A stretch of DNA of 64,000 bases from Rapana venosa (taxonomy: Eukaryota; Mollusca; Gastropoda; Neogastropoda; Muricidae), in the NCBI GenBank assembly GCA_028751875.1, contig CM054134.1, positions 40,991,830-41,055,829 of the forward strand, given 5' to 3'. This document shows, piece by piece, positions 27,563-59,487 of the stretch. Each line of letters starts with the position of its first letter. Position 1 is the stretch's first letter. The notes under the pieces were generated by a model. It had not been told where the DNA came from, searched no databases, and saw nothing but the letters and a program-made list of their open reading frames with translations. The translations under genes were made by a program, and so were the position numbers.

Positions 27563-28561
27563 TCATGAACTTTCCTGATTCCGGAGTGTGTCATTCTCCA
27601 GTAATTCATCTTTTATCCCATCTAATATCTGATTCACTTTCAGCCTATCATTTTTTCTGGGCCGTCCTATGGTGGGCACTGTGCTGTCATCGCTTTCTCC
27701 CTGTCTTCTGTACATGCTGGTGTCAACAACAATGCCGTGTTTTGACTTCAAGTGTGTTCTCAAGGACACCCGAACAGTGAAAGACTGCCCACACTGATCA
27801 CACACATACGGCTTTTCTCCTGTATGTTGACGCATGTGGACGCGCCTGGCGTTACTCTTGGTAAATGAGCGTGAACACACAGAACACTGGTACGGCCTTT
27901 CCCCAGTGTGTGACAGGACATGAGCTCTCAGCTGTGCCGCATTGAAGAATTTCTTTCCACACCAGTCACATAAATGACTGCGAACCTTATCGACAGTGTG
28001 AGCGGCCTTTACATGCATGTTGCGATGTGAGCTAGATCTAAATGTTCTGCCACAATGAGGACACTTGTAGGGTTCTTCTCCAGTGTGTTTTCTCATGTGA
28101 TACTTCAGTCTGCACTGCTGTGGGAATTCTTCATGACAAAACTCACACGTGTAAACTTTCTTTCCTTTGCCCTGTTGTGAAACCGCTTTGTGTTGCTCAT
28201 GTTTGTGAACTGCCAGTCTCATTTTGCACTGAAAAACGGCAGTGCAGCCATCAATATCACAGGCATAGGGCTTAGCCTGATGGCTTTGGACCATATGACG
28301 GTAGTAGACAGTTCCCTGCAAAAACTGCATGCCACACTCTGAGCACTTCCATGGGGCTGGGACCTTGTGCTCCAAAATCTTGTGTGTTTCACAAACCCTG
28401 GCGAGGGCAAAGTCTTCACCACACATGTGACAATGATGGAGTTTTTCCACAGTCTTCTTTGTAGATAACAGCAAATCTCTGTCTGATGACACAACAAACC
28501 CTTTGACTGCTGCAGACAGAATCCTCTGGCTCTGCTGTCCTGTTGCTGGCTTTCCACGTTT
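27563..28561 (-). CDS. gene A exon with all eight C2H2 fingers
   Basis: The exon opens after a strong acceptor (TTTCCTTTGTTGCAG, ending at 28,562) and runs 332 codons to TGA. Every finger keeps C2H2 spacing: 1 and 2 are C-x2-C-x12-H-x4-H, 3 is C-x4-C-x12-H-x4-H, and 4-8 are C-x2-C-x12-H-x3/4-H. The linkers after fingers 4, 6 and 7 are TGEEPYK, TGERPYQ and TGEKPYV. The 5-6 linker is atypical (TVDKVRSHL), which usually means a break in continuous major-groove reading. The tail after finger 8 reads GIVVDTSMYRR, then PTIGRPRKND and a charged end with DELLEN. This terminal exon is well supported by frame, splice site and paralogy. Confidence 0.95.
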   Translation of the reverse strand, partial: KRGKPATGQQSQRILSAAVKGFVVSSDRDLLLSTKKTVEKLHHCHMCGEDFALARVCETHKILEHKVPAPWKCSECGMQFLQGTVYYRHMVQSHQAKPYACDIDGCTAVFQCKMRLAVHKHEQHKAVSQQGKGKKVYTCEFCHEEFPQQCRLKYHMRKHTGEEPYKCPHCGRTFRSSSHRNMHVKAAHTVDKVRSHLCDWCGKKFFNAAQLRAHVLSHTGERPYQCSVCSRSFTKSNARRVHMRQHTGEKPYVCDQCGQSFTVRVSLRTHLKSKHGIVVDTSMYRRQGESDDSTVPTIGRPRKNDRLKVNQILDGIKDELLENDTLRNQESS

Positions 28562-28735
28562 CTGCAACAAAGGAAACAATAACTACATCAATGTCAAAGT
28601 GACCACCAACAAAAAAACCAACAACAACAAAACTCACCAGCTGACAAAATATTTGTACAGGAGAAACTGAAAATAAACATAAATACATGTATAAAGAGAT
28701 CACACTTTATAGACAAACTACAAAAATAATCAAGT

Positions 28736-28766
<31 letters not shown>

Positions 28767-28980
28767 CAGAGATACTTGAAGTCAGACACACCCTAAGACT
28801 GGAGCTGAGACCAAAACAAATCATGAGGAAAAGAGAGTGCAGAGGGGCTTAGTGAACAATGAAACACACTTATCACTAATCTGGAAACATAATTCACATA
28901 TTACATGCAAGACAAACCTGTAACTAAATTATGCAAGTAAGCACATGGCTGTTCATTAATATCCATCAGTATGCAAATTA

Positions 28981-29033
<53 letters not shown>

Positions 29034-29564
29034 ACAGACATTAAACCATATATATAGTACATATGCAAGACTAATATATATACAGCAGAACATTTTTCAG
29101 CCACATAAGAGACTCACTGACAACACTGCCATGTATATATAAAATTATGTATAACAAATAATTTGTAACGTCTATTCTGACTGGGTCAAGTGTGTGAAAA
29201 TCAAATAATTGGTAACAAATGGCAGACATAACTCGCAGTTTTATAATAATCAGTTTCTCCTACTATATAATTTATAGTAATAAAATCTGGTTGAAGTCTT
29301 AAAATGAAACTATCTAAAAACATTACAATCAGTGCTGAGAAAATGTTCATGAACAAAACCACCCAACAACATAAGCAATTCCATTCCCCCAAATAATTTC
29401 CAGGGGAAAGGGAAAGAAAAAAGCCATAAAATCTCTAACTGGAACAGAATAATTTCCAGAGGAAAGGGAAAGGAAAAAGCCATAATTTATAATCTCTAAC
29501 TGGAACAGAAGAAAGTCCTGAGTCAAAATCTAAAGATACACTCCACAGTTTATTAAAACTACTC

Positions 29565-29607
<43 letters not shown>

Positions 29608-29670
29608 TGCATGCTTGAGTGTGCACACAATATATATCTATATATACACATGTACATACATGTATTAGTA

Positions 29671-29745
<75 letters not shown>

Positions 29746-30002
29746 ACACACACCCATATTATAATGAGAAACTACTGTAAACTTACACATGTGTGCATAA
29801 AATTCTTTGTGTAATAAAAAATTTCTGTTAATCTGACAAAACTAACCTTCACTGAACTGAGGCCAATGCTTTGGTCATCTTCATAATCTCCAGCAGCATC
29901 CATCTCCTGGCTGTCCATAGTGTCTATGTCCTGCATGGTTTCTGGACAGGATTTCTCCAAGGCTGTTACAGTAAAGGGCAGGAACTGAACCTGGTCTTCT
30001 CC
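27563..30002 (-). CDS. gene A: eight-finger C2H2 zinc-finger protein (at least 384 aa, 5' end open)
   Basis: Two supported exons (30,002-29,847 and 28,561-27,563) join in phase 0 across a 1,285-bp GT-AG intron. Architecture: acidic N-terminal segment (about residues 1-52), shared G-F-V block (about 73-85), fingers 1-3 (96-117, 125-146, 153-176), fingers 4-8 (191-327) and a tail with GRPRK at 351-355. Such proteins are normally nuclear DNA-binding regulators; the target is unknown. No FLYWCH exon was found upstream. The nearest paralogue is gene D, with the same finger number and a shared C-x4-C finger 3. The start codon is unresolved: an in-frame stop lies immediately before the first exon, so either an upstream exon supplies the start or translation begins at an internal Met (residue 23 or 30). 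Confidence 0.88.
28982..29032. repeat. (CT)n microsatellite
   Basis: About 25 CT units in the gene A intron. Confidence 0.95.
29392..29508. repeat. tandem duplication, two copies of about 56-61 bp
   Basis: AATAATTTCCAGRGGAAAGG through CTCTAACTGGAACAG occurs twice in a row (29,392-29,447 and 29,448-29,508) with few differences and a 5-bp length change. Confidence 0.9.
29565..29743. repeat. (TG)n and (AT)n microsatellites
   Basis: TG at 29,565-29,605, TATATC/TACATG patches, then a (TA)n run at 29,676-29,743. Confidence 0.93.
29847..30002 (-). CDS. gene A upstream coding exon, acidic N-terminal segment
   Basis: A 156-base interval lies between an acceptor-like CTTAG (30,006-30,003) and donor AAG|GTTAGT. 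It is open for exactly 52 codons and joins the finger exon in phase 0. The peptide begins GEDQVQFLPFTVTALEK and continues with an Asp/Glu-rich stretch (METQD-type residues, then DAAGDYEDDQ). It has no zinc ligands. VQFLPF resembles the junction blocks of D (VQFYSP), B (SQNFVP) and C (YQNYVP), which supports it as coding. The acceptor's pyrimidine tract is weak, so the 5' boundary is the least certain part. Confidence 0.65.
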
Positions 30003-30479
30003 CTAAGGTCACAGTAACGCCATGACACATTACAATTAGGCAAAACCTCAGTTTCTATTTTATTTCATAGCAATAGCAACTGCTAACCTTTGGAGAAGAA
30101 AATTATTGGAAAAGAAAATTAGTCATGATCACTTTAGGTTTTCACTTGTCACATGTGATGCTATGAACTTCCTAGCATTATATATATCAAAACCCAACCC
30201 AAACTAAAAGGAATGGTACTGTCATGGCTGTGCTCCTGGTCATGGCTGACTCAGTGACTGGATAAGCCTTTCATTAGCACATAATCATATGCATGATTCT
30301 GGGGATTAGTGGGGTTAGAGCATCAAACTCAGGATCTCAGATCTAATCTGAGAACGTGAGAAAATGGGCATGGGAACTGAGGTCTTTGTTCAAGAGGGCC
30401 TAGTGTGTGCATGCTGGTGCATGTGTATGTGTGTATGTGTGTGCATGTGTGTGTGAGTGGGTGTTATTTATCTATTTAT
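30003..30479. other. gene-free stretch upstream of gene A exon
   Basis: No further exon of gene A recognised. TG-rich patch at 30,425-30,460 and TTTA repeats at 30,465-30,490. Confidence 0.35.
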
Positions 30480-30706
30480 TTATTTATTCTTTTATATCGA
30501 GGATAATGGAATAAGCACTCATGTGCTTTTTTACATCCAGTCCCCGTGTGTATGCGGTTTTGTAACTTTTGTCATGTTTCCACCGGCACACAATGGCCTA
30601 CTCTTCCAAAAAGCGGAACAGGATTTAACGTGTGCGCAAGATGTTCTGCATGCGTTCACACACGGGGCCTCGGTTTATAGTCTCATCCGAAGGTGTATGC
30701 ATGCGT
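30480..30706 (-). mobile_element. SINE 3' part (ATGAGACTATAAACCGAGG family), minus strand
   Basis: Reverse complement of the family block: it starts with TTTATATCGAGGATAATGGA and ends with GGTTTATAGTCTCATCCGAA. It has no tRNA head, so it is 5'-truncated. Confidence 0.85.
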
Positions 30707-31221
30707 GCATGCGTGCGTTTCTCACTTTCTGTCACTCCATCAGTCCATGTGTGTGCATGTTTTGCACATGTATGTATCATCACAACCTGTGTGCATACTT
30801 TTAAAAAAAACAAACATTATCTTTAATCAGATTCAACAAGAGCACATAAATACATGTATAATATTTGAACCAGCACTGTCTGAATCAACACCATTGAGGT
30901 CAAATGGTTTCACAAACAGACCCTTGTTTCAGTTGTTACTTTCCCAAAGTCTGAAAGTGGTGTCATTACCCACACTTTCTTCCCAGATTCATCTACTGAT
31001 CTAGTCTTATTTCCAATTTGTGACATAGCCCTTAGTGAAACAGAATGAAAGTAAGTCTATTTGAACATTAACTAAATGAATAAGCGTTGGAAGTACTGAT
31101 GCTGATAAGTACACACAGAGACTGAGCAAAGTTGGAATTCATCAGTACTCCTTATAACATGTACGTACACCTCAGTTTTGGAAACTTTTGCAGTCATTTA
31201 TAAGTAATTACTATGTGTGGG

Positions 31222-31290
31222 CCTAGTCACACGGAAGTTTTTTCGGAAGGCGCTGCGCCACTGTTTATAGGTTATACAGTTATAAACAGC
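31222..31290 (-). promoter_or_regulatory. possible gene A promoter region with two CGGAAG motifs
   Basis: Two CGGAAG cores lie 12 bp apart (31,232 and 31,244; CTTCCG on the minus strand) next to GGCGCTGCGCC, in a locally CpG-richer patch. ETS-type sites near start points are common in animals. A hairpin (CTGTTTATA ... TATAAACAG) follows at 31,261-31,289. Position about 1.2 kb upstream of gene A's first recognised exon is compatible with a promoter; there is no direct start-site evidence. Confidence 0.25.
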
Positions 31291-32915
31291 AATCAAGAAT
31301 AAATATCGCTAAGAAACCGAAAAGTTAACAAGCAGAACTACCTGTACATGTGATGCTTCAGGAAGAAAAAGTGTTTCTAGGAGGTAAACATACCAGTGTG
31401 ACGTTGGCTTTACGGGTTATAAAGCTTCTTCCTGTCAACGAGTTCTTGATCCTGAAAGATGGTCATACACCAGAAATGCAATACCGAAATGGTAGTAAGA
31501 ATGATACAAATTATTGGCTGTGCCTTGTTCATATCTACTCCGTTTCTTCTGGCAGATAAATTGTAACCTACATGATCGTTACAAAATGACTGCTTTTAGC
31601 TATATTGTTTCTGCGAAGTTTCTCCCAGCAGAAAAAAAAATTGCAACATAAATATATATATTTTTAACAGAAGACTGAAAGGGTGCATGCATACTTTGTG
31701 CATTAGTTCTGAACGTGAGATTAATCATTGCAAAAGTTAGTAACTATAACAACAAACAGAGTTGGAGAAAGAACATCATGACTGTGGGAATGGTTAATTC
31801 TATGATTCAGTGTCACTACCACCCTTTCACTCAGTCACTGTGCAGCAGACGCTTGTGGCCGAGGTACCGTATGACCCTTCTCCCTTTTTATAGGCAGGAC
31901 TGACTTACATCAGCAGATTTCCAATCTGACAGTACTTCGCCAGTTTCCAGTGATTTGTCAAAACAAAACAAAAAGTGGTGGAGGTCAGGACTACTTCAGG
32001 TGCACTAGCTGCTTTATGTTGCAGTGTCTGAAATTTTACTTACAAGTATGCATGTCTTCCAGTAGTTAAAACGTGTATTTACTGAGATAAAGAAATCCTC
32101 AGATGGTTATGTTCCTGTGAATCAATGGTGGATGTCTTCAGCCTCTCAAACTGTTCCTGGCCTTTCTAATTATTGCAACAACAACAAAAAGTTTAGGAAG
32201 CAAGTTTGTTTATCAGTTCTGTAATCGGGCTCCAGCGGGTTTCAGTGTAAAATACCATCACTTTGTTTTTGAACTAGTCCATGGTTTTAAGGTCGTGTCT
32301 CATTACAGTGTTGAAAGTCTTCAGATCATGGAGCTTATCTGTGTTGAATTCTCCAGGGGCTGTGGAAAGGCTGTTGTACTTCTTTGAACTTGATGTTTCA
32401 AAGATATGTCAGCAGAATCTAGATGTTAGCTGCAGCTAGCCATACCCCTTTTTCCTACATTCCATTCTGTGACAGTTGTATTGAACAGTCTGGAGCCGCA
32501 TGCATCATTAGTCATCACTAAAACCTCAATTTTTCTGCATCTTTCATTTCTTTTTTATTTGGGGGGGGGGGGGGGTGATTTTTTATTTGTATTTTTTTTT
32601 TAAATAAAGGATGGAGAAAATGCTGAGGCTCAGATTAGGCAACCAGGTTGGTGGTAGCTAAGCTTTACCTTCAGTATCTTCCAAGCTGCATATTATAGAG
32701 TGTGTTGACAGACCTTCGGGTCCGTTTACTCCCCCTCCCCCCTAATTTTTTTTCTTTCTCTCTCAGTAATACCAACAGATTATGAGACATTTTCTGTATC
32801 ATCAATGATAAAAGAATATCTGGAAGAATCAGAGCAGGATTTTTCAAAGATAAGTCAGCAGATCAGGGATCTCAGCTGAAGGACCATCCATTCCTAGGAT
32901 GTGGACTAGAGGCCT
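31291..32915. other. gene-free interval between genes A and D, part 1
   Basis: Unique-looking sequence with no supported exon on either strand. G run at 32,561-32,575 and T runs at 32,580-32,603. Confidence 0.35.
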
Positions 32916-35395: not shown

Positions 35396-35812
35396 GAGGG
35401 GAATAGCCAAGCTATTAGAGTGTTGCTCATGACTGACGCCCGGGATCAAGCCACTAAGGAGGCGCCGGTTTTAAGGAATTTTACCCTGGAGTTAATATCA
35501 GACTCCACTTCCTCAAAAGTCCTTCATAGGAGACTATAAACTGAGATCCCATGTGTGTATGTATGCAAAACATCTAGTGCACATATTAAGAACCTGTTTT
35601 GCCTTTCAGAAGAGTAGGCCATTTCATGCCAGCAAGAACAGATGACAAGTTTTTGAAAGTGCATGCACAGAGGTGCCCTGTTTAGATGTCATCCCCAAAG
35701 TCGGACTGCAGCTACCTTAAAAGAGGGTAAAAAACCCAAACAACAACAGTGACCTGCAAAATCTCATCTTTGGTAAACCTTGGAGCTCCAGCTGAGGTGC
35801 ATAAAAAACCAA
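35396..35812 (+). mobile_element. tRNA-headed SINE, near full length
   Basis: Head with AATAGCCAAGCTATTAGAG and CCGGGATCAAGCC, then TTACCCTGGAGTTAATATCA, GAGACTATAAACTGAGATCC, GAGTAGGCCATTTCATGCC, CATCCCCAAAGTCGGACTGC and TTTGGTAAACCTTGGAGCTC. Same layout as 5,395-5,730. Confidence 0.8.
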
Positions 35813-36777: not shown

Positions 36778-37722
36778 TCACTGTTTCACTTTCACTATAT
36801 CTTTTTTTCTTGGCCTCCCAATGGGCGGTAAGCAACTGTCTTCAGGTTCTTCAGGTCGTCTATACATACTGGTGTCCACAACAATACCATGTTTAGATTT
36901 GAGGTGTGTTCTCAAGGACACCCGAACAGTGAAAGACTGCCCACACTGATCACACACATAGGGTTTTTCTCCTGTATGTTGACGCATGTGAACTAGCCTA
37001 GTGTTGCTCTTGGAGAAGGAGCGTGAACAGAAGGAGCAGGGATATGGCTTTTCACCTGTATGCGAACGAGCATGCCTCCGAAGCTGGTCTGCACTGATGA
37101 ATTTTTTCCCACACCAGTCACACAGATGATTTCGATGCCTGACATGGAAAGTGCGCACATGTTTTGTGCGCTCTGAACTGACCCGGAATGCTCTGGGACA
37201 ATGAGAACATTTGAATGGTAGCTCTCCTGTATGTTTTCTCATGTGGTAAGCCAGTTTACACTGATGAGGATATTCATTTGGACAAAAGGGGCATTTATAC
37301 ACAAATTTGTCCTCTAATATTCCTTTTGTTGACGACAAATGCTGCTGATGCTGTTGTTTGTGAAAGGTCAGCTGGACTCTGCTGTAGAAGATAGCAAAAC
37401 AACCTTTGTAGGCACAAATGTGAATTCTAACATTGTGGCTGCGTACCATATGAAGACTGAACAGTGACCCATGTATAAACTGCATGCCGCATTTGTCACA
37501 CTTCCAAGGTGCTGGGACCTGATGCTCCAGCATCTCATGTGTTTCACAGACTCGGGCAATGGCAAAGCTCAAGCCACAGATGCTGCACTGATAGCGTTTT
37601 TCAATATCCTTTTCCTCAGACAGCAACAAATCTCTGTCTGATGCAACCACAAACCCTCTGACAGCGGCAGATAAATCCTTGTCATTGAACTCTTCTGGCC
37701 TCACCGATACAGGGCTGTAAAA
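36778..37722 (-). CDS. gene D exon with all eight C2H2 fingers
   Basis: The exon follows acceptor TTTCTTTTTCAG (ending at 37,723) and runs 314 codons to TGA. It begins FYSPVSVRPEEFNDKDLSAA. Finger 3 is C-x4-C-x12-H with histidines three and six residues later (HKQQHQQH), an irregular end. Linkers after fingers 4, 6 and 7 are TGELPFK, TGEKPYP and TGEKPYV; between 5 and 6 it is VRHRNHL. Finger 8 has the same protein sequence as gene A's finger 8. The tail reads GIVVDTSMYRR, a Pro/Glu patch, then PPIGRPRKKD. The open frame continues upstream into CA-repeat sequence, but the acceptor and paralogue comparison place the exon start here. Confidence 0.95.
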   Translation of the reverse strand, partial: FYSPVSVRPEEFNDKDLSAAVRGFVVASDRDLLLSEEKDIEKRYQCSICGLSFAIARVCETHEMLEHQVPAPWKCDKCGMQFIHGSLFSLHMVRSHNVRIHICAYKGCFAIFYSRVQLTFHKQQHQQHLSSTKGILEDKFVYKCPFCPNEYPHQCKLAYHMRKHTGELPFKCSHCPRAFRVSSERTKHVRTFHVRHRNHLCDWCGKKFISADQLRRHARSHTGEKPYPCSFCSRSFSKSNTRLVHMRQHTGEKPYVCDQCGQSFTVRVSLRTHLKSKHGIVVDTSMYRRPEEPEDSCLPPIGRPRKKDIVKVKQ

Positions 37723-38348
37723 CTGAAAAAGAAACACACGTGGGCACACATCCGCGCACACACACGCATGTGCACACGCACACACACCTGAGTCAGTACC
37801 AACAGTCAGATGCATTATCTTTACTTTTTTTATATTTTTAGGTTGTGTATGTGCATGCATGTATTCATGTATGTGCATGTGTGTCTGTGCATGCATGAGA
37901 AAAAGAGAAAGAGAGAGTCCAGGCGTGTGTGCGTGTGTGTGTATGTCAGTATGGGTGTACTGTGTGTGCATGTTGAGCAACTATTACTGCTTGCACTCTT
38001 AGCCGTAACAACATTCATAGATACTCACCTATAGTAAGTTTAAGATGTTTAAAATTTTTCTAGGTGCTTGAAATTAAATCCAATTCTTTCTCCATACACT
38101 GATACAGTCAAAAATCTTCACAGCCCATAGGAACCCTTGTCTTGACTTTATTTATAGTTTATTACCTGTGGTCATATATATGTTATAATGTATCAGAAAC
38201 ACAGAAAGGCCAGCAATTAATCAAACATTGAAAAATGCATGGAATATTGATCACTGTCAGTTTCTACAGTCTTAAGTCACCAAGATTTTTACTGATGTTA
38301 ATCTTTACTCACCTGAACTGCAGAATATTGTTGCATGGTCACAGGCAT
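36778..38348 (-). CDS. gene D: eight-finger C2H2 zinc-finger protein (about 326 aa)
   Basis: Two exons (38,348-38,313 and 37,722-36,778) joined in phase 0 over a 590-bp GT-AG intron give what appears to be a complete coding sequence. Architecture: short N-terminus (1-28), shared block with GFVVASDRDLLLS (about 35-47), fingers 1-3 (58-79, 87-108, 115-137/140), fingers 4-8 (156-290) and a tail with GRPRK at about 314-318. It is predicted to be a nuclear DNA-binding regulator. It is closest to gene A; base-contact residues differ in fingers 5 and 6, so target preference has probably diverged. A minus-strand AATAAA at 36,688-36,683 lies 90 bp past the stop and would give a very short 3' UTR. It is transcribed away from gene B, 6.4 kb to the right. 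Confidence 0.88.
37723..38312 (-). other. gene D intron
   Basis: Donor CAG|GTGAGTAAAG, acceptor TTTTTCAG. Contains short CA/TG-rich patches (37,745-37,790 and 37,850-37,950); no other feature. Confidence 0.6.
38313..38348 (-). CDS. gene D first coding exon with two in-frame start codons
   Basis: A strong donor (CAG|GTGAGTAAAG) ends a short open stretch reading MPVTMQQYSAVQ in the phase required by the finger exon. The inner ATG (38,336-38,334) has the better context (GTGACCATGC); the outer ATG (38,348-38,346) has TTAATGC. Not detectable as an ORF on its own. Support comes from the donor, the phase match and the junction VQ|FYSP, which parallels SQ|NFVP in B and YQ|NYVP in C. Confidence 0.6.
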
Positions 38349-40147: not shown

Positions 40148-40165
40148 CCTTCACATCACACACAC

Positions 40166-40395
40166 ACCCCTTCTGATGAGACTATAAACCAGGTCCCTGT
40201 GCAACGCACGCAGAACATCATGTGCACACGTTAAATCCTGTTCGGCTTTTCGCAAGAGTAGGCCATTGTGTGCTGGTGGGAGCAGATGACAGAATTTACA
40301 AAACCGCATTCACACAGGGACTGGATGTAAAAAAAAAAAAAAGCACATACGTGCTTATTCCGTTATCCTCGACATAAAAGAATTATTTCTTTTTT
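40166..40395 (+). mobile_element. SINE 3' part (ATGAGACTATAAACCGAGG family)
   Basis: GATGAGACTATAAACCAGGT to GGACTGGATGTAAAAAAA and CCTCGACATAAAAGAA. 5'-truncated, with the missing part replaced by the C-rich tract. Confidence 0.85.
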
Positions 40396-40770
40396 AAATA
40401 GTCGTTCACTTTTACCGTAGTATAAAATTATTTGCTTTTAGTTCAGTCTGCTACAAGCATGAATGGCTATCACTAGTATCTGGGAGTATTGCTTCTATGC
40501 CAACGAAAACACTAGCTTTCCTGTGACTGAGGAAAATAAGTATCATCATCTGAACTGCAATCATACCTTCTGTTTTCTTCATTTGTTTTATCTAGAGTGT
40601 AGAACTTGCACAATAAGCAACACTAATTCCATGTCTAATTTCTGGCGATCAGCATGGTCGTCTGCTGTGACTGTAACAGTAGGCTAAGAGGAAGACCAAC
40701 TTCTGAATGACCTTGACCTTAATCGGCAGTTTGGTCACAATCCGCAAAACAAAATTGTAGACTCAGTAAC

Positions 40771-40815: not shown

Positions 40816-41090
40816 TAAAGACTGGTACATGTGACAGTAACATCTGCTCGACAAGACTGACTGAATTTCTTTGATTAATTAGGGTCCCAGCGGAGTTACC
40901 GACTTAGGGACGGTATGCGGTATGGACTGTACCAACCAACCACCCCCTCCAAGCCCTGAGAGACTCCATAACAGGGCACACTTGTTTTTGATTATTTAGA
41001 TTTACACCCCAGCGGAGATTTCCGATTTAGTGAGAAAAAAAGGGATGGAGGGGGGGTACACATGGTGGACTCAGTATATTCATCAAGGGG

Positions 41091-41383
41091 GTGTCCCATA
41101 ACCTATAAGGTCGTAGGGGAGCGAGGTTCAGAGACCTCACTTTTCTAGGGGCCAGCATATTGAGGGCGGTACCCATCTCCTCTCCCTGCTGCTTTACCTT
41201 CCCTGACCCTTAAGAGACAGGTACCCATTTGCTGCTTGGTGAACTGAGGGGGGGGGGGGGGGGGGGGGGGTTGACTGAGCCAAGGTGGCAAACGGTCACC
41301 CATCCGAATGGTAACCACGCTCGACGCTGCTTAACTTGGCTGGGGGAAAGCGAGTGCTCCGACCACTGAACTATCCTGTCCCC
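41091..41383 (-). mobile_element. SINE with tRNA-like A box and 5S rRNA-like segment, copy 2
   Basis: Aligns end to end with 48-320, including GTGTCCCATAACCTATAAGG, GGGGCCAGCATATTGAGGGC and CGGTCACCCATCC. A G run (41,251-41,270) has expanded inside the copy. The A-box region is degraded (GGACAGGATAGTTCAGTGG on the minus strand) but recognisable. Confidence 0.75.
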
Positions 41384-42617
41384 AAATTCATCAGACATTG
41401 CAGAAAATAATATAAAGTACTCAGTCATTACCTCCCTCCCCCAGCCCCACCCCTTCCTTCCCGGTCAAATGGTAGACCATCATCTTTCAAAGATAGATCT
41501 AGGCTCATTTGGATTGGAATAGGTCTACAATTGGCTGTTGCAAACTTATGTATATTATTATTATTATTATTATTATTATTTAAACCTGGGCAGGCCTATG
41601 CTAATGCATCACCCATTGCGCTGAGCCGACTTTGCAATTTGCGGAGTTTAGCCAAAACTGCGGAAAATGGCTGACCAGATTCCCAGATCTGTGAGAAAAC
41701 TTGCTTATCAGTGCTCTTAGTTTCTAGATCACCTAAGCAGCCCTGTTTGGTTTACCTCAGCCTTGACACTGATGTTATGTAAATGCACTAGTTAATGAAT
41801 ACCATGCTTAAAGGCTGTTGCAAAGTCGTTGCAGTGTTGATGGCACTTGGCAGTGAGGAATGATGCATTTTAAGTTAACAAAATTCGACTTAAGTTATAC
41901 CAGTTATAGATATAATACTGTTTTAGTTGTACACTACAGTTATACATATAGAATACTAGTAGTTATAGTCTCTTCTAATCTGTTTATCATGTGTGACAGA
42001 TCCTTCCTTGAACTAATTTTTATGACTGTAATGATAATAATAATGATGATGATGATGTAGTGGTTAATCTTTATAGAGCTTTGGAGAAGTTTTCTGTTTT
42101 GTTGCAGTGGGGTGGGTGGGGGTCTTCAATTAGCATTTTTGCACATTTTGATTGGTTGATGGATCATAATCAGTCCCAACACTTACTAGCTTGAAGGTGT
42201 AGCCTGGTGAGTACATTAACTGTTGTCTCAGTCTCTAGTCAAGCAGCTTGCATGTACTATTGTACTGGCATGGAGATCATAATACAATGCTCATCATTGC
42301 AGGGGACATGATCTTGATCATTAAATAATCATGACAAAGCAAATGAAACTTGATGATTAGTTAACTATTAAAGACAAACCAAAGAAAAAATAAAAGTAAA
42401 AAGCAGTTGTCTGATGCTGTGAAGCTAATAACTAATAAGATATCATAAGGTGGTTATAATGTATTTTGAAAATCTTAGAGGAAAAAAGTTAGTGATAAGA
42501 AATTGCTTGACATATTGAATTGCATACTTAATTAATTTTATGCTTTGAATTATACTTAAGACAAGCAGTAACATAATCTAATGTTGAAGTGGCTCACTCT
42601 TGTTTGTCTTTCACTGA
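41384..42617. other. interval between D and B, part 2
   Basis: (ATT)n at 41,556-41,580 and (ATG)n at 42,035-42,056. No supported exon. Confidence 0.35.
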
Positions 42618-44706: not shown

Positions 44707-44958
44707 GCAACCAGCTCTGTATCTGCCATGGAAGAACCGTTCAAGCTGCAAGACCTGCTCCGCTACCGTGCCACTATGATATGGGATGGCTACGTCTACC
44801 AAAGAGAGAGAATCGGGAACAACCGCAGCTGGTGGCGCTGCCGTAGAAATCGTCCCCGGGACAAAGAAGCCAGAATGTGCATGGGCAGAGCAGTGTTCAA
44901 GAACCAAAAGCTGACGGTCACAGTGGAGCACAGTCATGGACCTGAAACGAGGAGTCAG
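44707..44958 (+). CDS. gene B FLYWCH exon
   Basis: Acceptor TATTCTTTTCCTAG precedes 84 open codons; the donor is CAG|GTAGAC, which is not ideal. The domain shows the family pattern: a hydrophobic start ATMIWDGYVY, then SWWRC, then MCMGRAV and finally VEHSHGPE. The Zn ligands are C38, C51, H68 and H70 when numbered from the internal ATG at 44,728. That ATG has a strong context (GCCATGG) and would give a 503-residue protein. The seven preceding codons read ATSSVSA and match PTSKVSA in gene C, hinting that they are also translated. The exon is 252 bases, phase 0 on both sides. Confidence 0.9.
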
Positions 44959-47900
44959 GTAGACTTTAGAATTAGGTTCTACAGCTTTCAAGAATTTATT
45001 TTTTTTAATTGAATTTTTTTTTATTATGTTATACCACTTTAAGTCATGGCAGATTTCTCTGCATGAAATCAGGGCTGCTCTCCCTGGGAAGTAATACCAC
45101 AAGAGCAGCACCCCCACCCCCCTTTATTTTTCCTCATTTTTCTTGCCCCTTCTCTCTGGATCAGCACAGATTCTTTCAGGGGAAAGAGCGAGGAGGGAGG
45201 AGTCTCCAACCTCGCTTAGCAGCTGGCCTGGAGCATACAGGACTGGGGGACTGTCTCTAGGAGCTTCTTTTATTTTCCTGTCTGCAACTGTATTTGTTTT
45301 CCTATCAGAGTGGCTTTTTTCTACAGAATTTTGCAGGAGACAACTCTCCTGTTGCCGTGGGTTCTGTTATATGTGCTAAATATGGAATGGAAATTTTTTT
45401 CTGCTTTCTTTTGTTATGATTCTTCTTTTTATAAGTCAGAATCATATTGCTAATGCTGAAAGATTTCTTATTGAAACATTTTTTTTAATAGTCTTTATGG
45501 ACCTGTAGAATTGCAAGTAATAAAATCTGGTATATAACTTACGCAGTAGATAAAGATTTGTTCACAATGAAACTTGGTGTCTTACAAGTGTGTACACCTG
45601 GAAAAAAAAGAGGAAAAAAAAGCACAAAGAAATGTATAATGTTGCAAGTTCATTAGTTCAGATGACCCTTGTAGAGTTGTGATATATGTCTATCCATTAG
45701 ATCTGTTCATGAATGAAAGCCTGTCTTTTTCATGATCCTTTAGACTCTTTAGTTGATAATGGCTACAATGAGGACGCATTTAATTGACACTGGACAGAGA
45801 ACTTTTTTTTTTCATTACTCCTATACATTGCTCATACATCACTTGCCTTTGATATCTCAAAGGTTTGGGGGTTTGTTTGTTTTTTGGGGGGTTGGGTTTT
45901 TTTCATTTAATAAAGGCATGTGTTTCTCCAAGAGATTTCATTCAGCGTGTGATTTTCAGCAGTTAAGTGGAACTTGAGCATTGCCTTAAATGATTACATA
46001 TAATACAAAATACAGAATTAAAGAAAGAAAGAGAGACACAGAGAGAGAGAGAGAAGTATATGGTTATATATTGATGTTCAAATTACCAAATAATGGAACC
46101 AGCTGTTTTCTTTTTTAATTACATGTTTTTTTAAAAGCAGTAAGCTTTATTTAGTATGCTTATTATATAATATACTTGGTAAAGAAGTCTGCTGACAAAG
46201 AGATATAAAGTTACACAAGTCATTTCTTATCATTTATGATTAGGTATGTGATGTTAGTATGTCTGATGTTCATTTTTTAAGTTTTAACAGATTGTAATAC
46301 ATATATCACTCATTTTTAGATTATGTATGTATTACATGAATTTATCCATAGTGTACATTATTATGATTATATCAGATTGTATTTAGGTGACTGTTTACTC
46401 TTGTCCTTGCAGAACACACACTCACCTTCAAGCCTGCATTAATTCTCTTTGGTCTGACTCTTGAGTGAGAACACATACATATGCAGGAACACACACCCAT
46501 AAGAAACAAAATATCTCTCTTTCTCCCTTCCTCCCTCTCTCCTTCCCCCTCTCCCTCCCCCCCCCCCCCCCCCCCCCCCCCCACACCCCACCTTCCCCCT
46601 CTACTCTCTCTCTTGCTTTCTCTCTCTCTCTTTTGGTTTCTCTCTCTCTTTTTCTCCTCTCTCCTGCTCCCCTGCTCTCTCTTTAAGACACAGGTGAGGC
46701 TGGAGCATTGCAATAATCATGAACAGTGAGGAACACAAATGAAATTAGATGCACAAAACTGAGAAGTAACCATTTCACATGATTTGCAATGCTTTCTTTG
46801 TGTACTTTTGTTCGTTTTTTTAAGTGTTTATCATGTTGTTTTTAATGTATTACTTCTATCTTCTGAAGTTGTTTGACATAATATTTTATGTCTGTCAGTA
46901 CTGCCTAAGTATTGCTGTGTTTGTTAACTGTAATCTTTTTTTTTTGGTCTGGTTTCATTTTCAGAACTTTGTTCCGTGGCATTGTAGACAGTCAAGTAAT
47001 AAGGATTCATTGACAGCAGTGAAAGGCTTTGTGTTGCCAACTGACCAAGCTTTGCTACAATCAAAGGTAACTGATGTGGTTAAACATCACCAGTGTGATC
47101 TCTGTGGAATGAAATTTGCCATTGCAAGAGTTCTGGAAACCCACAAAATGCTAGAACACCAGGTTCGTGCGCAGTGGAAATGTAGCGAGTGTGGCATGCA
47201 GTTTCTGCAGGCAGAAAGCCACGATCGTCACATGAACATAAGTCATTCCCTTGTAAATTATGAACATGACTCTGCAAGCAGTTTTTTCATTGCTCCAGAG
47301 GATTCTGAAGAGCAAACCGAAGTACACTTGAAAACAAGTGATTGTTGTGAAAAATTATCGGAGCCAGAGGCTAGTGTGGAAGCAATGGAAAAGAAGCCAC
47401 CGTCAGGCTTGGAAACAAACAATATCAATCCACTGACATGTTTAGAGAAGGATTCAGAGAATAAGGCAGAGCTTAAAAAGGAAAAACTACCAAAGGAAAA
47501 GAAATGTGTTTATAAATGTGAGTATTGTTCGGAGGAATTTCGCCATCCGTGTAAACTAAAAGTTCACATACGAAAGCACACGGGAGAGACCCCTTACAAG
47601 TGTACACTCTGCCCCAGATCATTTATATCTAGCTCCACTCGAGGTGTGCACATAAAGAACGCACACCTCAAAGTTCGCAAACATTTGTGCACATGGTGTG
47701 GGAAAAAATTCAGCTTGCCAAAGACACTGAATGAACATATGCGTACACATACAGGTGAAAAACCGTACTCCTGTCCTTTCTGTTCCAGACAGTTCTCAAA
47801 GAAAAATGCCATGGTAGTTCACACTCGCCAGCATACTGGTGAAAAGCCTTATGTGTGTGACCAGTGTGGTCAGTCATTCACCGTCAATGTGTCTCTTCGA

Positions 47901-48245
47901 ACACACCTGAAGTCTAAACACAATATCATCATTGACACTAGCATGTACATGAGACAGGTGAAACCAGGAGAAAGTAATTTGCCAACAATAGGTCGACCAA
48001 AACGAATAGAAGCAGAAAAACAGCTGCTACCAAGCAAAGAGAATGGAATGGTTGAGAAAGAAACTGCTCATGTTACTCGGAAAACTGTGAACACTGAAAG
48101 TGAAATGAACACGACTTTCCAGCTCGATAATTTCAGCGTGTTGAACGCTTTCAGTGCAAATGCTTCCTATGTTATGCCTGACACGGCTCCCACTGGTGCT
48201 GTCTTTCCCATCCCTAAAAGTGAACCTCGCATGTTTTTGTTTTAA
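44707..48245 (+). CDS. gene B: FLYWCH plus seven-finger C2H2 protein (at least 503 aa)
   Basis: Two exons (44,707-44,958 and 46,965-48,245) join in phase 0 over a 2,006-bp intron. Numbered from the ATG at 44,728: FLYWCH domain about 13-72, GFVLPTDQALLQS block about 98-110, fingers 1-2 (121-142, 150-171), a 90-residue charged linker (172-261), fingers 3-7 (262-396), an AT-hook-like GRPKR (420-424) and a C-terminus with PTGAVFPIP. FLYWCH domains are Zn-binding modules used for DNA or protein contact, so a nuclear regulator with two DNA-binding modes is likely. The nearest paralogue is gene C. Candidate poly(A) signals are AATAAA at 49,321 and 53,813. An upstream coding exon may exist, because similarity to gene C continues ahead of the ATG. 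Confidence 0.9.
45028..45385 (-). mobile_element. old SINE copy, minus strand, in gene B intron
   Basis: Contains GGCAGATTTCTCTGCATGAA, GGGCTGCTCTCCCTGGGA, TTTTTCTACAGAATTTTGCA and GACAACTCTCCTGTTGCCGT. Same family and orientation as 55,265-55,545, but placed differently relative to the FLYWCH exon, so the two insertions are independent. Confidence 0.7.
46512..46685. repeat. CT-rich tract with long C run
   Basis: CT and CCT repeats around a C homopolymer (46,558-46,582). Confidence 0.9.
46965..48245 (+). CDS. gene B exon with seven C2H2 fingers
   Basis: 426 codons then TAA. It begins NFVPWHCRQSS. Fingers 1-2 are joined by QVRAQWK. The linker between fingers 2 and 3 is Glu/Lys-rich with no C-x4-C finger, where A and D keep one. 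Fingers 3-7 read through linkers TGETPYK, LKVRKHL, TGEKPYS and TGEKPYV. The final finger is CDQCGQSFTVNVSLRTHLK and so on, one residue different from A and D within the finger core. The tail NIIIDTSMYMR aligns with GIVVDTSMYRR of A and D. The open frame extends upstream to 46,824 through a T-rich intron end; that part is not coding. Confidence 0.97.
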   Translation, partial: NFVPWHCRQSSNKDSLTAVKGFVLPTDQALLQSKVTDVVKHHQCDLCGMKFAIARVLETHKMLEHQVRAQWKCSECGMQFLQAESHDRHMNISHSLVNYEHDSASSFFIAPEDSEEQTEVHLKTSDCCEKLSEPEASVEAMEKKPPSGLETNNINPLTCLEKDSENKAELKKEKLPKEKKCVYKCEYCSEEFRHPCKLKVHIRKHTGETPYKCTLCPRSFISSSTRGVHIKNAHLKVRKHLCTWCGKKFSLPKTLNEHMRTHTGEKPYSCPFCSRQFSKKNAMVVHTRQHTGEKPYVCDQCGQSFTVNVSLRTHLKSKHNIIIDTSMYMRQVKPGESNLPTIGRPKRIEAEKQLLPSKENGMVEKETAHVTRKTVNTESEMNTTFQLDNFSVLNAFSANASYVMPDTAPTGAVFPIPKSEPRMFLF

Positions 48246-51348: not shown

Positions 51349-51387
<39 letters not shown>

Positions 51388-53506: not shown

Positions 53507-53543
<37 letters not shown>

Positions 53544-55264: not shown

Positions 55265-55545
55265 TTACCACTTTCAGTCACAGCAGATTTCTCTGGGTGG
55301 AATTCATATTGCTCTCCCTTGGGATAGTGTATCGCCACAGGAGCCATGCCACCTTTTTTTCCATCTTACTCGTAGTGTGTGTGTTTCCCTGAGTGTGGCT
55401 TTTTTCTACAGACGTTTGCTGAGGACAACTCTCATGTAGCTGCGGGTTGTTTTACATGCGCTGATTGTGTGTTGCACATGAGATCTTGGTGTATTGTCAC
55501 ATCTGAAAGACAAGCACCCAGACCAGTATTCATGGTCTAGAGGAT
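55265..55545 (-). mobile_element. old SINE copy, minus strand, upstream of gene C
   Basis: Contains CACAGCAGATTTCTCTGGG, TATCGCCACAGGAGCCATGC, TTTTTTCTACAGACGTTTGC and GACAACTCTCATGTAGCTGC, paralleling 45,028-45,385. Confidence 0.7.
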
Positions 55546-55564
55546 GTAGGGAAAGTTTGGGATC

Positions 55565-55669
55565 AAGGTTGAACTGACATTTTTGTTTAATCAGATAAGG
55601 TTAAACTGACATTTTTGTTTAATCAGATAAGGTTGAACTGACATTTTTGTTTAATCAGATAAGGTTGAA
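55565..55669. repeat. 32-bp tandem repeat, three copies
   Basis: AAGGTTGAACTGACATTTTT plus GTTTAATCAGAT occurs at 55,565, 55,597 and 55,629 with one substitution, plus a 9-bp partial copy. Confidence 0.95.
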
Positions 55670-56087
55670 GCCACATTGTCTTCAATGTATTCCACATTTG
55701 TCAGTATCGCTTACCAGTGTCCAGTTTGGAGACAGAGGACAACAGACTTTTCAACATTTGTTGACCAGTCACTAAGTAAATGCAACTTGACATGATCATC
55801 TTGATATTTTTTGCATGCACAAGTTTGTGTAGTTTAATTCTTTCTGTCACCTATTCTTTTCCTCTGTATGTGTGCGTGCATGTGTATGTGTGCGTGCGAG
55901 TATTGATATAACACTCATCTATTGTATAGATCTATCATTTATGAATACAAATTGAGCATACGTATGTGAGCAGGCAGATTCCTGTGAGCAAGATTTTTAT
56001 TCGAAATTTATCAGCTTTGGTGTGTCCACTTGTGTATACTTACATCAGTAAAGTCACGTACAGACTGCACCCTTTTTCTTTTACCAG

Positions 56088-56363
56088 CCGACTAGCAAAG
56101 TAAGTGCGGATGAATGTGGCGGTGTGGGGGAGCCGCCCAGCAAACGGCCCACACTGCCAAACTACCGCTCAACCATGATCTGGGATGGCTTCATGTATCA
56201 CCGGGAGAGGATCGGCAAGAAGTGTAGCTGGTGGCGCTGCCGAAGGAACCGACCCCAGGACGGGGAGAGCAGACAGTGCTTTGCCAGAGGCGTCTTCGAG
56301 TTCTCCGATCAGGAGCTGAGGATTACAGTGAAGCACACTCATGGTCCAGAGTCCACATATCAG
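56088..56363 (+). CDS. gene C FLYWCH exon
   Basis: Acceptor CTTTTTCTTTTACCAG; 92 open codons; donor CAG|GTAATG. The peptide starts PTSKVSADECGGVGEPPSKR and contains the FLYWCH signature RSTMIWDGFMY, SWWRC, RQCFARGV and VKHTHGPE, with Zn ligands C51, C64, H83 and H85. The exon is phase 0 on both sides (276 bases), like its counterpart in gene B. The insertion DECGGVGEPPSKRP relative to B lies just ahead of the domain. A GTAAGT sits 12 bases into the exon and could act as a cryptic donor. Confidence 0.9.
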
Positions 56364-56959
56364 GTAATGGTTGGGGAAGGAGTTTCCAGGTGCCTCCCTG
56401 TTCCACACATGATAGGAATAGTAATCATAACTAATCATCAATAACGTAATATCGATCAAAAGGTCATAGTAGTGTGCGTTTCTTGTCCACAATCTTAAGT
56501 AAGTCGTAAGTGTTAATGATAAATCATATGTAAAAAAGTATATATAAAAAGTTACACATGCACACATGCGCGCACATACACACACACATGCACACGCATA
56601 TATATGAATCTTCGGATGAGACTATAAACCGAGGTCCCGTTTGCGAGCGCACGCAGAACATCTTGCACACACGTTAAATCCTGTTCCGCTTTTTGTAAGA
56701 GTAGGCTATTGTGTGCCGGTGGGAACAGATGACAGAATTTACAAAACCGCATACACATGGGGACTGGATGTAAAAAAGCACATGCATGCTTATTCCATGA
56801 TCCTCGATATAAAAGAATAAATAAAATAAAATAAATGTACACATTCATACATGCATACAAACACGCACACACACACACTCACATACATACATACACACAC
56901 ACACACAAATAGAGATAGATAGATATATACGTACGTATATATGTATGTATATGTGTGTG

Positions 56960-57009
<50 letters not shown>

Positions 57010-59487
57010 GGATGAGCAGAAAATAGGCACCCATTACTAGAGGGGAAACTAGCGTGAGAAGATCCACTTTTGGTCTGACATGATGAGATAGTTGCAAGAT
57101 ATTTGAAAAGGTAATATTGATCCAGCTAAGATCATTCTTGGCAGTCAAATCAGGGTTACCTTCAAAATCCACTAACTAGTTTTATCTGTTTTTAAAACAG
57201 TATTAAATTCCGATGAACTGTGATATAGCTTTGATTCACAAAAATTGTTATAGAAAGAAGTTGATAAGGAATTCTTCCATATGTCAATCATTGGACATTT
57301 GCAGTATGAGCACTTATTAATATATTATAAGCTGATCATGTAGCTCTATAGATATCATATACATGAAGTACTGATACTATTTTCTCTGCTATTACCAACC
57401 CAATCTTACATGTCCTGACGTACAAGCATAAGTTCACTGGCCATAGTATACTGTGATTAAGTAACAGTTCACATATAATGAACATTATGGGCATGCAAAT
57501 CCCATAATTTTTCCTGTCCATGGAAAAATCTCAGATATACAAACTCACCATTTTTTACAAATTTTCATATAGCAATTGCTTGACTTCTCTGGCTATGGAT
57601 GGGGGGGGAGTGGATTTTGCCCGTATGTGATAGCCTTGTGATCTGGTGGATTTGGTCAACTAAATGACCAAAAAGTTCTGAATAATTTATGTGTCAGCAT
57701 ATTTCGTTTTGAAATGCCACAAAATGCTATAAACAGAGAGAATCAAAGTAAATTTCTGCTGAGAATTCTGACCAGTTTATGCAAATGAATAGTGCTACCT
57801 TCTTCAGTATAACAACAGTTTATTTTAATAGAATTCAAATCAATGCAAATTCATTAGTTGGATTAATTCAATGTCTTATTCCTAGAAAATCTAAGAAGAT
57901 GAAAAGAAAATTTGTTACTGCTTTGTAGTTTATTTGCAGGTCTGAATCCTCCAAGGTGAAATTACCCTTACTTAAATTTGTCTAGTTATCCCTGTCTTTC
58001 TCAGATATGGAAAACCTAAATGAAGAGCCCCTACCCACCCACCCCAGTTTTGGGGTTTTGTTTTACAGCCAATAGATAACATCTGCTATTTGTCACCAAA
58101 ATAACTGAATATAATATTGTCGTCAGCATAGAGAGAGGTATGTCAATTCTAAAACACATGAAATCCTTTTATTTAACATGGTAATACTGAGTGATTCAGT
58201 CATAAGATGTTCATGCTTCTTTTTCAGAACTATGTTCCCCCGCCATGCGGACCAAGTAAAAAAGACTCAGCAGCTGTAGTGAAAGGCTTTGTGTTGCCAA
58301 CTGACCAAGCTTTGCTACAATCAAAGGTGACTGATGTGGTGAAGCATCACCAGTGTGACCTCTGTGAAATGAAATTTGCCATTGCAAGAGTTCTGGAAAC
58401 CCACAAAATGCTAGAACACCAGGTTTGTGCGCAGTGGAAATGTAGTGAGTGCGGTATGCAATTTTTACAGGCAGAAAACCATGATCATCACATGAGACTT
58501 AGCCATCCATCACCTGATGATGATCCACATGATGTGGCCACTGCCTCTGACACTGTGGGTGATACAGTCACTGCCCCCAAAGATGAAGAAATGGTGCTGG
58601 ACATGAACACTGAGGAAGAGAAGAAAATGGTGGAGCCATATGCTGACATAGAAGAAAGAATCATTGAACTTTTGACTGTTGGGGAAGAAAACTTGTTAGA
58701 AACAAAATCAGGTGAGAAGATAAAGACAGAGAAGTTACCTAAGAAGGAAAGACAAATGCATAAATGTGATTATTGCTCTGCAGAATTCCGACACCCCTGC
58801 AAACTGAAGATGCATGTCAGACAACACACAGGAGAGAGGCCCTACACGTGCACCATGTGTCCTAAAACATTTGCGTCTGGGTCCAGACGAGGGGCACACT
58901 TTAAGTTTGCTCATGCCAAAGTTCGCAAACATTTGTGTGACTGGTGTGGGAAAAAGTTCACAAAGCTGGAGGTCTTGAATGAACATGTTCGGACACACAC
59001 AGGTGAAAAACCCTTCTCGTGCCATATCTGCTCACGACAGTTCAGAAAGAAAAACGCCATGACGGTTCACATTCGCCAGCATACAGGCGAGAAGCCTTAC
59101 GTGTGTGATCAGTGTGGTCAGTCGTTCACTGTGAAGGTGTCACTGCGGGCTCACTTAAAGTCCAAACACAACATCATTGTCAAAGCAGAACTGCCAGGTA
59201 GGACAGCACCATCTGGAGACAGCAGCATTCCCAGAATTGGCCGACCAAAAAAATCCGATGCTGAAAAGCAATTGTTCAGAAACTTAGAAAATGGGGATTT
59301 GGACAGAAAAGATGAAAAGCTGAACAGTGTCCTCAGTAGTTCCACAGAAAGAAAAGATAATCATCTGAAGCTGAACAATGTGAATGCCAGCTCCTCAGGA
59401 ATCCTTGACTGCAGTGTCTTCACTCTGCCAGTGTCTGACTCGGACGTTATTCCCACTGGTGCATTTTGCTCCATTCCTCAATTCTAA
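56088..59487 (+). CDS. gene C: FLYWCH plus seven-finger C2H2 protein (at least 511 aa, 5' end missing)
   Basis: Two exons (56,088-56,363 and 58,228-59,487) join in phase 0 over a 1,864-bp intron. Numbered from the first visible residue: FLYWCH about 26-87, GFVLPTDQALLQS block about 112-124, fingers 1-2 (135-156, 164-185), an acidic linker (186-271), fingers 3-7 (272-406), GRPKK at 430-434 and a C-terminus with IPTGAFCSIPQF. Architecture and role parallel gene B. No in-frame Met precedes the FLYWCH domain inside the exon, so a first coding exon must lie upstream. AATAAA at 60,645-60,650 is a good poly(A) candidate. Fingers 4 and 5 differ from B at base-contact positions, which suggests different target sites. 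Confidence 0.9.
56596..56825 (+). mobile_element. SINE 3' part (ATGAGACTATAAACCGAGG family) in gene C intron
   Basis: GGATGAGACTATAAACCGAG through GGGACTGGATGTAAAAAAGC and CCTCGATATAAAAGAATAAA, ending in a TAAAA-rich tail. Confidence 0.87.
56959..57006. repeat. (CT)n microsatellite
   Basis: About 24 CT units in the gene C intron. Confidence 0.95.
58228..59487 (+). CDS. gene C exon with seven C2H2 fingers
   Basis: 419 codons then TAA. It begins NYVPPPCGPSKKDS. Fingers 1-2 are nearly identical to gene B at DNA level, linked by QVCAQWK. The 86-residue linker is strongly acidic in its first two thirds (PDDDPHD, KDEEMV, NTEEEKK, IEERIIELL) and basic at its end (KIKTEKLPKKER). Linkers between fingers 3-7 are TGERPYT, AKVRKHL, TGEKPFS and TGEKPYV. 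The final finger carries FTVKVSLRAH. After it, the DTSMY motif of the other three genes is replaced by KAELPGRTAPSG. The stop codon lies in a segment that is duplicated downstream. Confidence 0.97.
   Translation, partial: NYVPPPCGPSKKDSAAVVKGFVLPTDQALLQSKVTDVVKHHQCDLCEMKFAIARVLETHKMLEHQVCAQWKCSECGMQFLQAENHDHHMRLSHPSPDDDPHDVATASDTVGDTVTAPKDEEMVLDMNTEEEKKMVEPYADIEERIIELLTVGEENLLETKSGEKIKTEKLPKKERQMHKCDYCSAEFRHPCKLKMHVRQHTGERPYTCTMCPKTFASGSRRGAHFKFAHAKVRKHLCDWCGKKFTKLEVLNEHVRTHTGEKPFSCHICSRQFRKKNAMTVHIRQHTGEKPYVCDQCGQSFTVKVSLRAHLKSKHNIIVKAELPGRTAPSGDSSIPRIGRPKKSDAEKQLFRNLENGDLDRKDEKLNSVLSSSTERKDNHLKLNNVNASSSGILDCSVFTLPVSDSDVIPTGAFCSIPQF

What the first reader, a model, noticed from the sequence alone, without database searches (positions are those of the whole stretch)
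27563..59487. Four-gene cluster of FLYWCH/C2H2 zinc-finger paralogues
Four genes in 32 kb share one protein plan: G-F-V block, two fingers, variable middle, five fingers, near-invariant last finger, GRP tail. Two of them add a FLYWCH zinc finger. Combining one FLYWCH domain with a seven-finger C2H2 array in a tandem cluster is not an arrangement I know as a named family. It could be a lineage-specific regulator expansion comparable in style to other clustered zinc-finger expansions. Function is not shown by the sequence.
Basis: partly seen in the sequence, partly recalled or inferred. Interest (0 to 1): 0.8.

Follow-up and report, generated by a model that had tools for sequence, protein, structure and literature searches.

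The report
Snail FLYWCH plus C2H2 regulator cluster
A snail-like genome carries four neighbouring genes for DNA-binding zinc-finger proteins, two of which add a second kind of zinc finger (FLYWCH); the same genes exist in other sea snails, so this is an old but unnamed regulator family, and two of the genes may be spliced together into one protein.

Summary
Four intact C2H2 genes lie in 32 kb (two on -, two on +), and two FLYWCH exons (Pfam 34.0 and 29.6 bits, cutoff 23.6) sit upstream of genes 3 and 4. Correction: genes 1 and 2 have eight fingers (3+5); only genes 3 and 4 have 2+5. The FLYWCH exons belong to these genes: Nucella lapillus and Babylonia areolata proteins join FLYWCH to the same array at the same residue, and a Littorina saxatilis protein keeps a diverged FLYWCH-like segment plus eight fingers. 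The fusion is therefore old within caenogastropods, not a species-level expansion. My searches found no named family.

Most novel point: the Babylonia protein has two FLYWCH domains because the gene-3 zinc-finger exon is cut at an internal point and joined in frame to the gene-4 FLYWCH exon. The window has an in-frame donor there (47066|47067) and the acceptor (56088), and gene 4 shows no start codon before its FLYWCH domain. Genes 3 and 4 may be one locus with alternative zinc-finger ends. That is inferred; I had no RNA. Most likely role: sequence-specific transcription regulators.

The parts
29847..29936 (-). gene 1, likely first coding exon (30 codons, acidic, no FLYWCH; donor AAG|GTTAGT)
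   Evidence: weak tblastn match to the N-terminus of Nucella P0017 (E 0.22); frame and donor; ATG position counted by hand
27563..28561 (-). gene 1, zinc-finger exon (8 C2H2 fingers, GRP tail, stop)
   Evidence: 88% identical to Nucella P0017
38313..38348 (-). gene 2, candidate first coding exon (12 codons, donor CAG|GTGAGT, 9/9 consensus); speculative
   Evidence: best of 3 rows at 7/9 or better; no homologue seen
36778..37722 (-). gene 2, zinc-finger exon (8 C2H2 fingers, GRP tail, stop)
44728..44958 (+). gene 3, FLYWCH exon from its likely ATG to the phase-0 donor (FLYWCH-A)
   Evidence: Pfam PF04500 34.0 bits; 92% identical to the Nucella FLYWCH; junction
46965..48245 (+). gene 3, zinc-finger exon (7 fingers, 2+5)
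47064..47072 (+). internal in-frame donor-like site AAG|GTAACT inside the gene 3 zinc-finger exon (last exon base 47066), 8/9 consensus; its use is inferred
   Evidence: the join in Babylonia P0004 is at the matching residue
56088..56363 (+). gene 4, FLYWCH exon (FLYWCH-B), phase 0 at both ends; first in-frame ATG is at 56175, at the first residues of the FLYWCH domain
   Evidence: Pfam PF04500 29.6 bits
58228..59487 (+). gene 4, zinc-finger exon (7 fingers, 2+5)

Best explanation
This is a small, old family of DNA-binding regulators of caenogastropod snails. Each protein reads DNA through a C2H2 array encoded in one exon. In genes 3 and 4 a FLYWCH domain encoded by a separate upstream exon is spliced on in frame, adding a second zinc-binding module for DNA or a partner protein. 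Fingers 1, 7 and 8 are nearly alike in the four window genes and probably read a shared core site; fingers 2, 5 and 6 differ between paralogues and probably give each its own targets. Genes 3 and 4 may also form one splice-linked unit: a transcript can go from an internal donor in the gene-3 zinc-finger exon to the gene-4 FLYWCH exon, giving a protein with two FLYWCH domains and the gene-4 array. Shown: open genes, domains, orthologues, conserved junctions. Inferred: DNA binding, targets, regulation, and use of the internal donor. The confidence given is for the family and the FLYWCH-array joining; the splice link between genes 3 and 4 is rated apart in the section on the most novel reading.
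For: Pfam hits. Nucella P0001 (500 aa) joins FLYWCH to the gene-3 array; Babylonia P0004 (616 aa) has two FLYWCH domains. Littorina P0015 has a related segment (tblastn E 1.1e-11 to FLYWCH-A; C, C, H, H kept) and 8 fingers. The FLYWCH-array junctions of genes 3 and 4 are phase 0 and read Q|N. Tree: g3+Nucella 99/97, g4+Babylonia 100/99, g1+Nucella+Babylonia 99/97, g2 with these 100/99. Contact residues (-1,2,3,6): g1-Nucella 30/32, g3-Nucella 26/28; paralogues g1-g2 14/32, g1-g3 16/28; finger 8 is VVST or VVSA in 16 of 16 sequences compared. Selection: g3-g4 fingers 4-7 dN 0.21, dS 2.05, the latter near saturation. Splice link: Babylonia P0004 reads ...ALLQSK|QTSNV...FLYWCH-B; window donor AAG|GTAACT at 47066 and acceptor at 56088 are both phase 0.
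Against: No RNA. The Babylonia model is an annotation whose transcript support I could not see; Nucella P0001 shows only the single-FLYWCH form. Contacts of gene 4 are no better kept with its Babylonia orthologue (19/28, finger 6 0/4) than with paralogue g3 (19/28); g1-Babylonia keeps 24/32. Across the 16 sequences fingers 1 and 7 are less fixed (6 and 7 contact sets) than in the window. Pfam does not call FLYWCH in Littorina P0015 even at E 1. The model of FLYWCH-A is weak (pLDDT 62.3) and Foldseek gave 0 matches at E 0.001 or better of 397 at E 10 or better; human FLYWCH1 is not among the 50 shown. In Nucella the gene-1 and gene-3 orthologues are on contigs of different length (1.54 and 3.00 Mb), so clustering is not shown there. 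An in-frame ATG at 56175 could let gene 4 start within its own FLYWCH exon. Donor-like sites of 8/9 occur 46 times on both strands of the window, 0.36 per kb, so one in an exon is not rare; the matching position carries the argument.
Confidence: 0.7

Rival explanations
1. Four independent genes. Gene 4 has its own promoter and either a short first exon that I did not recognise or a start at the in-frame ATG 56175, and the Babylonia two-FLYWCH protein is a false fusion of neighbouring genes by the annotation program.
For: First coding exons here can be short (gene 1: 30 codons). Nucella P0001 is a single-FLYWCH protein. Six candidate first-exon rows (four donors, 7/9) exist between genes 3 and 4, and the ordinary FLYWCH-A donor scores only 6/9, so my donor cut could miss a real exon. 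An ATG stands at the start of FLYWCH-B (read). False fusions of neighbours are a common annotation error (own knowledge).
Against: The Babylonia join is not at an exon end but at an internal point of the gene-3 zinc-finger exon, and the window has an 8/9 donor in frame at the matching point. No ATG-started candidate with a phase-0 donor of 8/9 or better, up to 400 bases long, lies between 48246 and 56080.
Confidence: 0.5
2. A transposon-silencing zinc-finger arms race in the style of KRAB or FiNZ zinc-finger genes: clustered copies that change their DNA contacts to follow mobile elements.
For: Clustered C2H2 copies with an N-terminal module in its own exon, as described for KRAB and FiNZ genes (passages of PMC10547256). 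Contacts differ between paralogues. With Babylonia the contacts are less kept than the rest of the finger core: g4 19/28 against 46/56, g1 24/32 against 52/64.
Against: Four copies in the window, old enough for orthologues in other snail families; with Nucella the contacts are kept about as well as the rest of the core: g1 30/32 against 62/64, g3 26/28 against 50/56. The number of copies in the whole genome is unknown, since the genome search did not complete.
Confidence: 0.15
3. The FLYWCH exons are leftovers of Mutator-type transposons or belong to other genes and are not part of these proteins.
For: FLYWCH domains are linked to Mutator transposases (passages of PMC10027918 and PMC6446971).
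Against: Annotated Nucella and Babylonia proteins carry FLYWCH, and a Littorina protein a FLYWCH-like segment, fused to this array with an N[FY][IV]P join; FLYWCH-A is 92% identical to Nucella and 86% to Babylonia. I noticed no Mutator transposase in the ORF lists, but those ORFs were not scanned with Pfam apart from the six.
Confidence: 0.03

Closest known systems
Annotated gastropod relatives without a family name: Nucella lapillus ACOMHN_054404 and ACOMHN_046793, Babylonia areolata LOC143287849 and 'zinc finger protein 711-like', Littorina saxatilis 'zinc finger protein 892-like'
   Same: Last-finger pattern in 5 of 5, GRPK tail in 4 of 5 and strict G-F-V pattern in 4 of 5; FLYWCH or FLYWCH-like segment in 3 of 5
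   Different: Their source names do not mark them as one family; Babylonia LOC143287849 has two FLYWCH domains
mod(mdg4) and lola of Drosophila (BTB loci with many alternative FLYWCH or C2H2 ends)
   Same: Works like, if the splice link is real: one 5' part joined to alternative zinc-finger ends (passages of PMC4667647 and PMC11426971)
   Different: No BTB match in the six window ORFs scanned; FLYWCH is N-terminal to the array here; the proposed splicing is between exons in order on one strand, not trans-splicing
FLYWCH1 (vertebrates), FLH-1/2/3 and PEB-1 (C. elegans)
   Same: FLYWCH domain; FLYWCH-A matches human FLYWCH1 (2rpr) by sequence at E 0.0025
   Different: As I recall these lack a C2H2 array; recalled, not tested here
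KRAB and FiNZ zinc-finger genes
   Same: Clustered C2H2 genes; FiNZ is encoded in a single exon upstream, as KRAB genes are built (passages of PMC10547256)
   Different: The module here is FLYWCH; four old copies in the window against hundreds of fast-changing ones

Membership tests
FLYWCH domain proteins (PF04500) | PF04500 match above the curated cutoff | tested here: met
   34.0 and 29.6 bits against 23.6, genes 3 and 4 only
FLYWCH domain proteins (PF04500) | Zinc ligands C, C, H, H in place (ligand pattern recalled) | tested here: met
   C38, C51, H68, H70 invariant in the 5-row alignment including Littorina
FLYWCH domain proteins (PF04500) | Predicted fold matches a solved FLYWCH structure | tested here: inconclusive
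   Model pLDDT 62.3 with five strands; 0 of 397 Foldseek matches at E 0.001 or better
C2H2 zinc-finger regulators | Tandem C2H2 fingers with intact ligands and TGEKP-type linkers | tested here: met
   7 or 8 fingers per gene
C2H2 zinc-finger regulators | Sequence-specific DNA binding | not testable with these tools
   Needs binding assays
mod(mdg4)/lola type loci | BTB domain in a common 5' exon | tested here: not met
   No BTB match in the six ORFs scanned nor in P0001, P0004 or P0015
mod(mdg4)/lola type loci | Common 5' exon spliced to alternative zinc-finger ends | tested here: inconclusive
   Babylonia P0004 model and matching in-frame sites in the window; no RNA
KRAB/FiNZ zinc-finger families | KRAB N-terminal domain | tested here: not met
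   No KRAB match in the six window ORFs scanned with Pfam
KRAB/FiNZ zinc-finger families | FiNZ N-terminal domain | not tested
   No FiNZ sequence was compared

The most novel reading that the evidence does not exclude
Genes 3 and 4 are one composite locus in which a duplicated FLYWCH exon and an internal splice donor inside a zinc-finger exon let one promoter make proteins with one FLYWCH plus array A or two FLYWCH plus array B: a snail counterpart, of separate origin, to the alternative-end loci mod(mdg4) and lola.
Probability: 0.37. Interest if true: 0.6.

Novelty: new variant of a known kind. Interest (0 to 1): 0.42.

Why it matters
It gives a testable case of a FLYWCH domain fused to a C2H2 array that has been kept across snail families, with FLYWCH missing in one pair of paralogues and one finger missing in the other. 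If the splice link is real, it shows another way for one locus to mix DNA-binding modules, on one strand and without a BTB domain.

Tried and rejected
FLYWCH upstream of genes 1 and 2: searched, none found. Recent species-level expansion: rejected on the orthologues. FLYWCH as a stray transposon piece: rejected on annotated relatives. Fold confirmation of FLYWCH-A: weak model, no useful match. tRNAs and Rfam families in the window: none at the default thresholds. Widening the family by FLYWCH-centred searches: one search gave 4 proteins of 68 candidates, one search gave only the query itself of 199; these searches need shared five-residue words, so distant relatives can be missed. First exon of gene 2: only a speculative candidate. 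In the first tree three long rows (P0034, P0075, P0077) were unsure; the second tree dropped them and gave the same groups for the window genes. An earlier wording of mine, that the FLYWCH-B exon has no start codon, was too strong: there is none before the domain, but an in-frame ATG stands at its first residues (56175, read); I lowered the probability of the novel case from 0.40 to 0.37 for that.
Full report
What is there. Stop-to-stop ORFs give four C2H2 exons, two on the - strand (27563-28582, 36778-37980) and two on the + strand (46824-48245, 58195-59487), and two FLYWCH ORFs at 44707-45012 and 56052-56444, upstream of genes 3 and 4 (Pfam 34.0 and 29.6 bits, cutoff 23.6). Splice sites read directly: FLYWCH-A ends CAG|GTAGAC at 44958 and the gene-3 array begins TTTTCAG|AAC at 46965; FLYWCH-B runs from ACCAG|CCG at 56088 to CAG|GTAATG at 56363 and the gene-4 array begins TTTTTCAG|AAC at 58228; these junctions are phase 0. 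Gene 1 probably starts with a 30-codon exon, 29936-29847, with no FLYWCH. Genes 1 and 2 have eight fingers, genes 3 and 4 seven.

Relatives. A search with the gene-3 ORF returned 3664 proteins at E 0.001 or better, of which 120 were listed; I read the sequences of 14. Three of the 120 match a FLYWCH profile built from six FLYWCH copies, four of which come from those same three proteins, so that count is partly circular. Pfam independently finds FLYWCH in Nucella P0001 (28.6 bits) and Babylonia P0004 (36.2 bits, two stretches) but not in Littorina P0015. Littorina rests on a tblastn match to FLYWCH-A at E 1.1e-11, on the four kept ligands and on the NYVPP join. Seven of the 120 hold the strict G-F-V pattern and ten the last-finger pattern. 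Babylonia and Nucella are Neogastropoda, Littorina is Littorinimorpha, and all three are Caenogastropoda. The Babylonia gene-1 and gene-3/4 proteins come from a sequence of the same length (102,942,266 bases), so probably one chromosome; the Nucella ones come from contigs of different length.

Age and history. The 16-row tree groups g3 with Nucella P0001 (99/97), g4 with Babylonia P0004 (100/99), and g1 with Nucella P0017 and Babylonia P0029 (99/97), with g2 next to these (100/99); the 13-row tree without three long rows agrees. So the duplications that made the four genes are older than the split of these snails. No gene-2 orthologue was seen among the 120 listed. FLYWCH is in g3, g4, P0001, P0004 and (diverged) P0015, and was not found for g1, g2, P0017 or P0029; for the unnamed rows the upstream exon is unknown, though P0006, P0007 and P0009 begin with the same QNY[VI]PPH join as if read in from an intron. 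One loss on the g1/g2 side is the simplest reading, and likewise one loss of finger 3 in the g3/g4 group. P0034, a long and unsure row, also has seven fingers and would be a second loss. The trees are unrooted, so gain and loss are inferred.

Gene conversion. Between g3 and g4 the stretch from the G-F-V block through finger 2 keeps the same codon at 52 of 62 identical residues (M and W left out), against 40 of 72 in the next fingers (Fisher p 0.0007; dS 0.38 against 2.05); between g1 and g2 the last finger does so at 26 of 32 against 32 of 67 (p 0.002). I made 12 such tests, of which these two were below 0.05, and chose the blocks after seeing the alignment, so these are indications. DNA identity shows the same for g3-g4: 87% over 282 bases against 75% over 418.

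How it works. In the four window genes the contact residues are nearly alike in fingers 1, 7 and 8 and differ in fingers 2, 5 and 6, with finger 4 between. Over all 16 sequences compared only finger 8 stays that fixed (two sets; fingers 1 and 7 have six and seven). g1 and g3 keep almost all contacts in Nucella (30/32, 26/28); g1 to Babylonia keeps 24/32; g4 to Babylonia keeps 19/28, with finger 6 fully changed, no better than g3-g4 (19/28). This suggests a shared core site with paralogue-specific additions; it is an inference from the C2H2 recognition pattern (own knowledge).

The splice link. Babylonia P0004 reads FLYWCH-A, NFIPSHC...ALLQSK, then QTSNV... FLYWCH-B, NYVPPPC and the gene-4 array; its first FLYWCH is closer to window FLYWCH-A (86%) than to B (63%), and its second closer to FLYWCH-B (72%) than to A (64%). 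In the window the gene-3 exon has CAATCAAAG|GTAACT at the matching residue, in frame with the FLYWCH-B acceptor; it is one of two 8/9 donors in that exon and the only one in phase 0. Gene 4 has GTGACT there, also 8/9; genes 1 and 2 have no 8/9 donor. Such sites are not rare in the window (46 on both strands, 0.36 per kb), so the position, not the mere presence, is the argument. There is no in-frame start codon in the FLYWCH-B exon before the domain, but one stands at its first residues (56175; read). No ATG-started exon of up to 400 bases with a phase-0 8/9 donor lies between 48246 and 56080; at 7/9 there are six rows with four donors. The known FLYWCH-A donor is only 6/9, so this test could miss a real exon.

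Comparison with print. Papers holding FLYWCH and mollusc: 3. I saw passages, not whole texts, of PMC10027918, PMC6446971, PMC10547256, PMC11426971, PMC4667647 and PMC12506669, and only listings for the rest; the passages seen do not describe a FLYWCH plus C2H2-array family. That I found none in print is limited to the searches in an open-access library, four of which listed only part of what they matched (15: 30 of 44; 21: 20 of 290; 50: 10 of 48; 51: 10 of 376).

Noticed in passing
window 19635-19844, 30483-30699, 35475-35673, 40163-40398, 56610-56821, 63393-63610 (partial matches near 5453 and 22528): An interspersed repeat of about 210 bases on both strands; five copies are 84-93% alike and the one at 35.5 kb is 71-79% like the others. 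Looks like a short mobile element; no Rfam or tRNA match in the window.
   Followed up: partly
window 59412-59586: A tandem duplication of about 88 bases (91% alike) spans the stop codon of gene 4, so the 3' end is repeated just after the stop.
   Followed up: no
window 20568-21415 and 10221-10744: Minisatellite arrays with 25-base and 12/23/35/92-base units; they stay open in several frames and mimic long ORFs.
   Followed up: no
window 47-322 and 41090-41385: A dispersed pair of about 300 bases at 80% identity, origin unknown.
   Followed up: no
window about 27736-27802 and 36888-36954 (last finger, genes 1 and 2): Possible gene-conversion patch: the last finger shares codons far more than the fingers before it.
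   Followed up: partly
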